From positions 1-30,852 of IMG/VR virus record IMGVR_UViG_3300020436_000051: a stretch of DNA of 30,852 nt; one strand, given 5' to 3'. The notes beneath the pieces were generated by a model. It saw only the letters and a program-made list of their open reading frames with translations, had not been told where the DNA came from and searched no databases. The translations under genes were made by a program, and so were the position numbers. How positions within the stretch are numbered: position 1 is the first letter of the stretch; every line of letters starts with the position of its first letter. The DNA comes from a virus. Shown here in pieces: positions 30,225-30,753 of the stretch.

Positions 30225-30497
30225 ATGAGTATTTACAAAATTGAAACAAGCCAAATTAATTCAATGGAGGCAGTTATTAAAACAAGTGAATATGATCAAA
30301 TTGATTTATCAGAAGTAACAGATATAGAAGGAACACATGCTTCTTTAAGATTCATTATGGATTCAAATATATTCATTAATAAATCATCTGTAAATTTAAA
30401 AATATTAAATCCAGACTTTGATCCAGAGGGGAAGATGGATGAGTATATGACTGAGTTAAAAAATGCCACAAGTGGTAATGTTGAAAAAATATCTTAA
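30225..30497 (+). CDS. Small protein after the adhesin, possibly an assembly helper
   Basis: A 90-residue acidic protein, 2 bases after the glycine-rich gene. It has SIYKIETSQINSMEAVIKTS, then IDLSEVTDIEGTHASLRFIM and NLKILNPDFDPEGKMDEYMT. No membrane segment is seen. Its place right behind the adhesin suggests a chaperone role like those of the chaperone-type genes in the main array, but it has none of their W/YR/LRDIP signature. The family is not recognised. Confidence 0.5.
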   Translation: MSIYKIETSQINSMEAVIKTSEYDQIDLSEVTDIEGTHASLRFIMDSNIFINKSSVNLKILNPDFDPEGKMDEYMTELKNATSGNVEKIS

Positions 30498-30502
30498 GAT
30501 AC

Positions 30503-30510
30503 AATAAATA
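30503..30510 (+). promoter_or_regulatory. Weak late-type box before the PsbN-like gene
   Basis: AATAAATA (7 of 8 to the T4 late octamer) lies 12 bases before the ATG at 30523. The leader would be very short, as with the same box before the gene at 15728, so its use is uncertain. Confidence 0.2.
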
Positions 30511-30522
30511 TCTTTTTTTCAT

Positions 30523-30753
30523 ATGCAGATAGTAAATTTTTTTCTATCTAGACCGTCTGTTTACACTCTTCCCGGAACTTGGGAAAAACAACCTTTAATT
30601 AAACATGGTAATTATGCTGGTTTGCCACCAGAGGGACAAATAATTGCTATTATTCTGATACTGCTATTCTTAGTCACTGGATATGGACTATATGTAGCTT
30701 TTGGACCACCTAATAAAAATTTGACTGATCCTTGGGATGAGCACGACGATTAA
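30523..30753 (+). CDS. psbN: PsbN-like photosystem II protein with N-terminal extension
   Basis: A 76-residue protein. Residues about 36-76 match PsbN: one membrane helix ([20 protein letters not shown]) followed by [19 protein letters not shown], very close to the PsbN C-terminal pattern 'TG(F/Y)G(L/I)Y.AFGPPS..L.DPF(D/E).H.D' of marine cyanobacteria. Cellular PsbN is about 43-46 residues; here about 34 extra residues precede the helix ([20 protein letters not shown]), with no in-frame ATG closer to it. PsbN in chloroplasts aids assembly and repair of the photosystem II core and sits in thylakoids. In a phage it would presumably keep photosynthesis running during infection. It follows a fibre cassette, not other photosynthesis genes. 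Confidence 0.7.

What the first reader, a model, noticed from the sequence alone, without database searches (positions are those of the whole stretch)
30523..30753. PsbN-like photosystem gene with an unusual N-terminal extension
The C-terminal half fits PsbN closely ([18 protein letters not shown] after one membrane helix), while the first 34 residues are not part of normal PsbN and have no in-frame ATG nearer to the helix. The extension is polar and Pro-rich and could be a new lumenal or stromal domain, a targeting element or a partner-binding part. The gene stands alone behind a fibre cassette. Whether phage psbN has been described before cannot be told from here.
Basis: partly seen in the sequence, partly recalled or inferred. 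Interest (0 to 1): 0.8.

Follow-up and report, generated by a model that had tools for sequence, protein, structure and literature searches.

The report
Cyanophage PsbN with a fused lumen cap
A marine cyanophage carries a photosystem II assembly-factor gene (psbN) whose odd front end turns out to be a conserved small module. Other phages, and Prochlorococcus itself, encode the module as a separate membrane protein. The joined and split gene forms therefore point to an unrecognised partner of PsbN.

Summary
The ORF at 30523-30753 (76 aa) is real. Residues 43-76 are PsbN (Pfam E=1e-15). The ~39-residue extension is translated and constrained (dN/dS 0.06) and has no conserved alternative start. 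Phage psbN itself is known (Sullivan 2010).

What I could not find described is the extension: a strictly N-terminal cap, M-x-F-L-S-x-P-x-[VA]-[YW]-x-L-P-G-T-W. It is present once in each of 14 cyanomyovirus isolates tested. Eleven have it fused to PsbN. Three have an uncapped PsbN plus a separate cap-TM-basic-tail protein; in some metagenomic phages the two are adjacent or overlapping genes (TAATG). The same cap sits on two PsbN-tail lineages, matching canonical host PsbN and a second, longer host PsbN-like protein. Cysteines flank the motif in 60 of 207 distinct proteins as a pair, never singly.

A homologous stand-alone ~64-aa host protein occurs in 43 of 300 genomes of the Prochlorococcus family (HHalign 98%). 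Charge distribution and published PsbN topology place the cap in the lumen and the PsbN tail in the cytoplasm.

Best reading: a two-sided PSII assembly/repair factor made by fusing PsbN to a lumenal partner module. The anatomy is well supported; the mechanism is inferred. 'Stands alone' is a contig-end effect: sister contigs continue into hli genes.

The parts
30523..30753 (+). capped psbN gene, 76 aa, ATG start, TAA stop
30538..30594 (+). cap core, residues 6-24 ([19 protein letters not shown]), predicted lumenal; homologous to stand-alone phage and host cap proteins
30595..30639 (+). linker, residues 25-39 ([15 protein letters not shown]); uncapped phage PsbN proteins begin in the equivalent segment (MIIPHYN..., MTFINLIPHGNYPGLSPEGQ)
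30628..30702 (+). membrane helix, residues 36-60 in the AlphaFold2 model (block-mean pLDDT 95 and 91 for residues 41-60; 75 for 31-40)
30703..30750 (+). canonical-type PsbN C-terminal tail, residues 61-76 ([16 protein letters not shown]), predicted cytoplasmic/stromal side
   Evidence: topology from PMC4823308

Best explanation
The gene encodes a phage PsbN, a single-helix factor expected by homology to assist assembly/repair of the photosystem II reaction centre during infection, to whose N-terminus a ~25-residue lumenal cap module is fused. The cap is an independent module: elsewhere it is a separate single-helix protein (cap, TM, basic tail) in phages and in Prochlorococcus-family hosts, and some phages encode that protein next to an uncapped psbN. 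The proposed mechanism is that one helix places the PsbN tail on the cytoplasmic face and the cap on the lumenal face of the thylakoid, so that one polypeptide contacts both sides of D1/D2 assembly intermediates. That joins two functions which the host, and split-gene phages, keep on two proteins. Shown: the sequence anatomy, conservation, fused and split forms, host homologue and paired cysteines. Inferred: topology, physical partnership of cap and PsbN, and action on PSII.
For: PsbN membership of the C-terminal half (tree places it with host canonical PsbN, 100/99). The cap is phage-wide and always N-terminal, with the motif's first proline 5-11 residues after Met in all 207 distinct proteins. 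Exactly one significant cap and one PsbN match per genome in 14 isolates: fused in 11, split in 3 (one further cap match in S-SSM7 at E=0.008 is noise-level; the P-SSM7 PsbN match is below the Pfam cut-off). In L323, L450, L453 and L454 the stand-alone cap gene runs into uncapped psbN with a stop/start overlap TAATG. Host stand-alone cap: HMM hits in 42/300 genomes, best chromosomal hits E~1e-9, against 2/300 weak hits (E~0.006) with the reversed-sequence control; HHalign probability 98%, 65% identity over 20 columns. Topology: ten representative stand-alone caps have 0-1 K/R before the helix and 2-6 after it, which predicts N-out; PsbN N-terminus lumenal, C-terminus stromal, role in PSII RC assembly from the review PMC4823308. 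Paired cysteines 60 both, 147 neither, 0 single, as expected for a disulfide in the oxidising lumen.
Against: No experiment links the cap to PsbN or PSII. A Synechocystis psbH psbN double mutant looked no worse than the psbH mutant (PMC4823308), so PsbN may matter little in cyanobacteria. The fused protein's own charge distribution (acidic C-tail) does not by itself predict C-in. The cap model has low confidence (pLDDT 55-71). Stand-alone caps lie next to the plastoquinol terminal oxidase gene in P-RSM4 and S-TIM4, and fused psbN precedes it in S-SSM4, which could mean a plastoquinone-related rather than assembly role. The host cap was found only in part of the sampled family (43/300, many genomes incomplete).
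Confidence: 0.55

Rival explanations
1. The cap is only an insertion, orientation or stability element: a short N-tail that sets N-out topology or protects the small protein, with no partner of its own.
For: It is short, strictly N-terminal, always followed by one helix, and found on helices of different sequence.
Against: Invariant residues within the motif and dN/dS 0.037 for the core are more than a topology signal needs. The motif exists as its own protein in hosts and phages, and as a separate protein alongside uncapped PsbN in split-gene phages, where it cannot orient PsbN in cis.
Confidence: 0.15
2. The cap serves plastoquinone/electron-flow rerouting (with the phage plastoquinol terminal oxidase) or another thylakoid complex, and PsbN is joined to it for that purpose.
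For: Stand-alone cap genes directly precede PTOX in P-RSM4 and S-TIM4, and fused psbN directly precedes PTOX in S-SSM4.
Against: Most capped psbN genes are not next to PTOX. S-SSM7's cap gene is not next to PTOX either.
Confidence: 0.15
3. The capped PsbN is an inhibitor or decoy that blocks host PSII assembly or captures host factors rather than helping PSII.
For: The protein differs from host PsbN precisely by an added module; nothing in the sequence shows the sign of the effect.
Against: Sister contigs of the window carry hli genes next to it, and one related contig carries psbA; such genes are understood to sustain host photosynthesis. The PsbN tail is kept under strong constraint (dN/dS 0.046).
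Confidence: 0.1
4. The extension is an annotation artefact and the protein really starts near TTG codon 34, giving an ordinary ~43-residue PsbN.
For: TTG34 in the window would give a 43-residue protein of normal PsbN length.
Against: TTG34 is absent from 10 of 20 close relatives; codons 1-39 show dN/dS 0.06; the same cap appears in separate genes.
Confidence: 0.02

Closest known systems
Cyanobacterial and plastid PsbN (PF02468; NF009650)
   Same: Single membrane helix followed by the conserved GPP/GPK...LTDPWD(D/E)HDD tail; Prochlorococcus canonical PsbN ends KLTDPWDDHDD.
   Different: Canonical host PsbN starts MQTLSSAPDPA and has no cap; the window protein scores 62.7 bits against the NF009650 equivalog cut-off of 70 and is not in a psbH context.
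Cyanophage T4-GC163 'possible PsbN' (Sullivan et al. 2010, PMC3037559) / PHROG 8051
   Same: Same gene family: PHROG 8051 covers window residues 6-76 (E=5.5e-24); P-SSM2, P-HM1, P-SSM4 and P-SSM7 GC163 proteins carry the same cap.
   Different: The passage on GC163 found in that paper names PsbN only and does not mention an N-terminal module; most records still annotate it as hypothetical; the window's contig belongs to a phage lineage with a D5-type primase and PolA-like polymerase in its sister contigs, not a recognised T4-like contig.
Cyanophage T4-GC646 / PHROG 33944
   Same: Same cap at the N-terminus.
   Different: Cap followed by a different helix and a basic tail (RRKRKRI), no PsbN tail; present in phages whose psbN is uncapped.
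Cyanophage PsaJ-PsaF (PsaJF) fusion of photosystem I
   Same: Phage fusion of two small photosynthetic membrane proteins that hosts encode separately (PMC3903132).
   Different: Both PsaJ and PsaF are known PSI subunits; here one half is an uncharacterised host protein and the other is an assembly factor, not a subunit.

Membership tests
PsbN (PF02468) | Profile match above the curated cut-off | tested here: met
   57.7 bits vs 25, residues 43-76 on profile 10-43
PsbN (PF02468) | NCBI equivalog model NF009650 at its cut-off | tested here: not met
   62.7 bits vs 70; the match starts at model position 12, so the canonical N-terminus is missing
PsbN (PF02468) | One transmembrane helix followed by an acidic conserved C-tail | tested here: met
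   Helix 36-60 in the model, tail [11 protein letters not shown]
PsbN (PF02468) | Groups with host canonical PsbN in a tree | tested here: met
   Canonical-tail clade 100/99 containing host canonical PsbN; short alignment, inner order weak
PsbN (PF02468) | ~43-residue length with only a few residues in the lumen | tested here: not met
   76 residues with about 35 before the helix
PsbN (PF02468) | Promotes PSII reaction-centre assembly | not testable with these tools
   Known for tobacco PsbN from the review PMC4823308; not tested for any phage protein here
Cyanophage capped PsbN (T4-GC163 / PHROG 8051) | Cap core plus PsbN tail on one helix | tested here: met
Stand-alone cap protein (T4-GC646 / host 64-aa protein) | Cap core at the N-terminus | tested here: met
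   hhalign 98% between the phage cap and host cap profiles
Stand-alone cap protein (T4-GC646 / host 64-aa protein) | Basic C-tail without PsbN tail | tested here: not met
   The window protein has the PsbN tail instead

The most novel reading that the evidence does not exclude
The fused and split gene forms reveal an uncharacterised Prochlorococcus membrane protein (cap, TM, basic tail) as a lumenal partner of PsbN. Phages have built from the two a two-sided PSII assembly factor, in some lineages locked by a lumenal disulfide. That would identify a partner for PsbN, for which the review read here says it remains to be shown whether it acts alone.
Probability: 0.4. Interest if true: 0.75.

Novelty: new variant of a known kind. 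Interest (0 to 1): 0.62.

Why it matters
psbN is a core gene of Prochlorococcus myoviruses (PMC3037559), is reported with psbA/psbD among the most abundant photosynthesis genes in one marine viral survey (PMC8940887), and lies in a further phage lineage here, yet its role in infection is unknown. Its mode of action in plants is also open: the review read here (PMC4823308) says it remains to be shown whether PsbN acts alone or with other proteins. Finding one module fused to two PsbN types, and separate but adjacent in other phages, gives a concrete candidate partner and a host protein that can be tested. It also changes annotation: two 'unknown function' PHROGs (8051, 33944) and a family of host small proteins become linked.

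Tried and rejected
Alternative start or artefact: rejected by codon-level selection and the lack of a conserved internal start. Cap confined to phages: my first scan of 84,980 species genomes suggested this (3 hits, all cyanophage-like DNA), but the profile search of host genomes overturned it; the first scan used one short peptide pattern that requires VY, whereas the host has VW/AW. Similarity to solved structures: none for the cap or host cap; the single phmmer hit to cytochrome b reductase (E=0.009) spans the residue 13-48 join and was taken as chance. Weak Pfam hits of the host cap (ERG4_ERG24 E=0.026; PAGK E=0.21) are below cut-off and were dismissed. Fold searches were not run because the cap part of the model is low-confidence. 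Uncapped split PsbN as the ancestral form: the tree nests it within capped Cys-type PsbN (94/88), so splitting looks derived in that lineage, with a short alignment as caveat. Direction of transfer between host and phage caps could not be decided.

Full report
Observation. The ORF at 30523-30753 reads [76 protein letters not shown]. Residues 43-76 are PsbN (Pfam E=1e-15). The frame is closed five codons upstream and there is no ATG between the first codon and the helix. Among 20 distinct close relatives of the same length the extension shows dN/dS 0.06 (residues 1-39) and its core 0.037 (6-24), against 0.12 for the helix and 0.046 for the tail. The only internal start-like codon before the helix in the window, TTG34, is present in half of them. 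The extension is therefore translated and functional.

The extension is a conserved module. tblastn and pattern searches found it in 44 phage records (Prochlorococcus and Synechococcus phages and marine single-cell virus records) and in over 300 IMG/VR candidate stretches (306, 343). In 207 distinct proteins, host ones included, the motif's first proline lies 5-11 residues after Met and a single membrane helix follows. Two cap types exist...S[KR][14 protein letters not shown]... and ...SCPPVYxLPGTWxKC.... The two cysteines occur together in 60 proteins, neither occurs in 147, and neither occurs alone, which suggests a disulfide.

Several tails, one cap. Among the distinct phage proteins collected, 86 carry a canonical tail ([10 protein letters not shown] type; two more with a slightly altered tail were counted as 'no tail'), 61 carry a longer tail (LRDPIDEHAKMHELGIAHGH...) and about 27 carry no PsbN tail. 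Prochlorococcus genomes encode two uncapped proteins that match the first two types: canonical PsbN (50 aa...KLTDPWDDHDD) and a second PsbN-like protein of roughly 65-95 aa (MLGTIKDPTLF...LRDTIKEHARMHELGIAHGHN...). In a tree of the PsbN part, each phage type groups with its host counterpart (100/99 for each side). The same cap therefore sits on both PsbN lineages, with and without the cysteine pair, which indicates modular exchange.

Fused or split. In 14 cyanomyovirus isolates each genome has one significant cap match (S-SSM7 shows one further noise-level match, E=0.008) and one PsbN match (P-SSM7's below the Pfam cut-off). Eleven are fused. P-RSM4, S-TIM4 and S-SSM7 have an uncapped 49-aa PsbN (MIIPHYNFDPNITF...DPFDDHDD) and, elsewhere, a 55-aa protein of cap, helix and basic tail. 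In several metagenomic phages the two genes are neighbours. In L323, L450, L453 and L454 the cap gene's stop overlaps the psbN start (TTAATG), and in L334, L335, L337, L342, L345, L351 and L352 they are separated by about 160 bases. Each phage examined as a whole genome thus keeps both parts, in one chain or two.

A host homologue. A profile of the cap found 42 of 300 genomes of the family of a Prochlorococcus single-cell genome. One of these hits, on a 189-kb contig of that single-cell genome, is a co-sequenced cyanophage. The others that I read are chromosomal ORFs such as MVFLSNPQVWHLPGTWSEQPIDGPYLGMTSSQLSWVAASILVTLLIAFSVYILETSNSKRKRSS and MFFLSIPQAWHLVGTWSEQL...NKKESKKIKG. A profile of this host protein found it in 43 of 300 family genomes at E<=1e-32 and, in a phylum-wide sample, only in genomes already found in that family plus three marginal matches. 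Profile-profile comparison of phage and host caps gives 98% probability and 65% identity over 20 columns. The reversed-sequence control gave 2 of 300 weak matches (E about 0.006). The host protein has no Pfam or NCBIfam family. It does match the phage PHROG 8051 at E=2e-7.

Topology. Ten representative stand-alone caps have 0-1 K/R before the helix and 2-6 after it, predicting N-out/C-in. PsbN is reported with its N-terminus in the lumen and its conserved tail in the stroma, is not a PSII subunit, and is needed for assembly of the PSII reaction centre in tobacco (review PMC4823308). The split and fused forms therefore predict the same arrangement: cap in the lumen, PsbN tail in the cytoplasm. 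The AlphaFold2 model gives a confident helix 36-60 and a low-confidence cap with short strands at 6-8, 14-16 and 25-27.

Context. The window ends 99 bases after psbN. In sister contigs (L003, L008, L011, L013, L021) the next genes, on the other strand, are a small cyanophage membrane protein (PHROG 7843) and one or two hli-like genes. A D5-type primase-helicase follows and, where the contig reaches it, a PD-(D/E)XK-like gene. Sister contigs of the same lineage encode terminase, major head protein and a PolA-like polymerase. One related contig carries psbA at its edge. So the gene does not stand alone; the contig was cut.

Mechanism. My best reading is a phage PSII assembly/repair factor in which PsbN and its lumenal partner module are joined on one helix. 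The review notes that PSII reaction-centre assembly needs factors on both membrane faces (HCF136/Ycf48 in the lumen, PsbN on the stromal side) and that it is unknown whether PsbN acts alone. The known PsaJF fusion in cyanophage photosystem I (PMC3903132) is a precedent for such joining. The partnership is inferred from gene fusion and operon structure; no binding was tested. A PTOX-related role remains possible.

Known or new. Phage psbN is known (PMC3037559; PMC8940887; PMC7029224). I found no description of the cap, of its stand-alone form or of the host homologue in the literature held, which lacks most subscription papers. I therefore rate it a new variant of a known kind.

Noticed in passing
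L221-L238 (Prochlorococcus-family genomes): A second, longer PsbN-like host protein with tail LRDTIKEHARMHELGIAHGH and, in many, a His-rich end; weak PF02468 match (E about 1e-5 to 1e-9), separate from canonical psbN. It appears to be the counterpart of the long-tailed phage PsbN.
   Followed up: partly
L100 / L187 (assembly labelled Nonlabens xiamenensis, contig 188,235 bp): The first 20 kb is 98.4% identical over 97% to cyanophage P-TIM40 (188,632 bp), so this bacterial assembly seems to contain a cyanophage genome as a contaminant.
   Followed up: partly
L101 / L186 / L233 (Prochlorococcus sp. AG-418-C09, 189-kb contig): Contig carries capped psbN and phage tail genes similar to P-HM2, so it is probably a co-sequenced infecting cyanophage in a single-cell genome.
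   Followed up: partly
L011:5359-5538(-), L013:5468-5647(-): Small cyanophage membrane protein MPELSLTNDITPFQAILWCFYPIGFVVLIELTLRA...GGGVMSPVYQGV (PHROG 7843, unknown function) next to hli genes; found in 35 phage records.
   Followed up: no
L323, L450, L453, L454: Cap gene and uncapped psbN overlap as TAATG, suggesting translational coupling.
   Followed up: yes
L335:81-275 and 1105-1299: Two different stand-alone cap genes on one phage contig, one about 160 bases upstream of psbN.
   Followed up: no
S-SSM7 (NC_015287) 224068-224217 and S-SSM4 (NC_020875) 145882-146091: psbN (T4-GC163 label in S-SSM7; capped PsbN in S-SSM4) occurs in Synechococcus phages, so its description as exclusive to Prochlorococcus phages does not hold in these records.
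   Followed up: partly
window 30465-30522 and upstream of the L001-L018 matches: An AT-rich TATAAATA/AATAAATA-like string lies 5-25 bases before the psbN start in many relatives; could be a late-type promoter or an untranslated leader.
   Followed up: no
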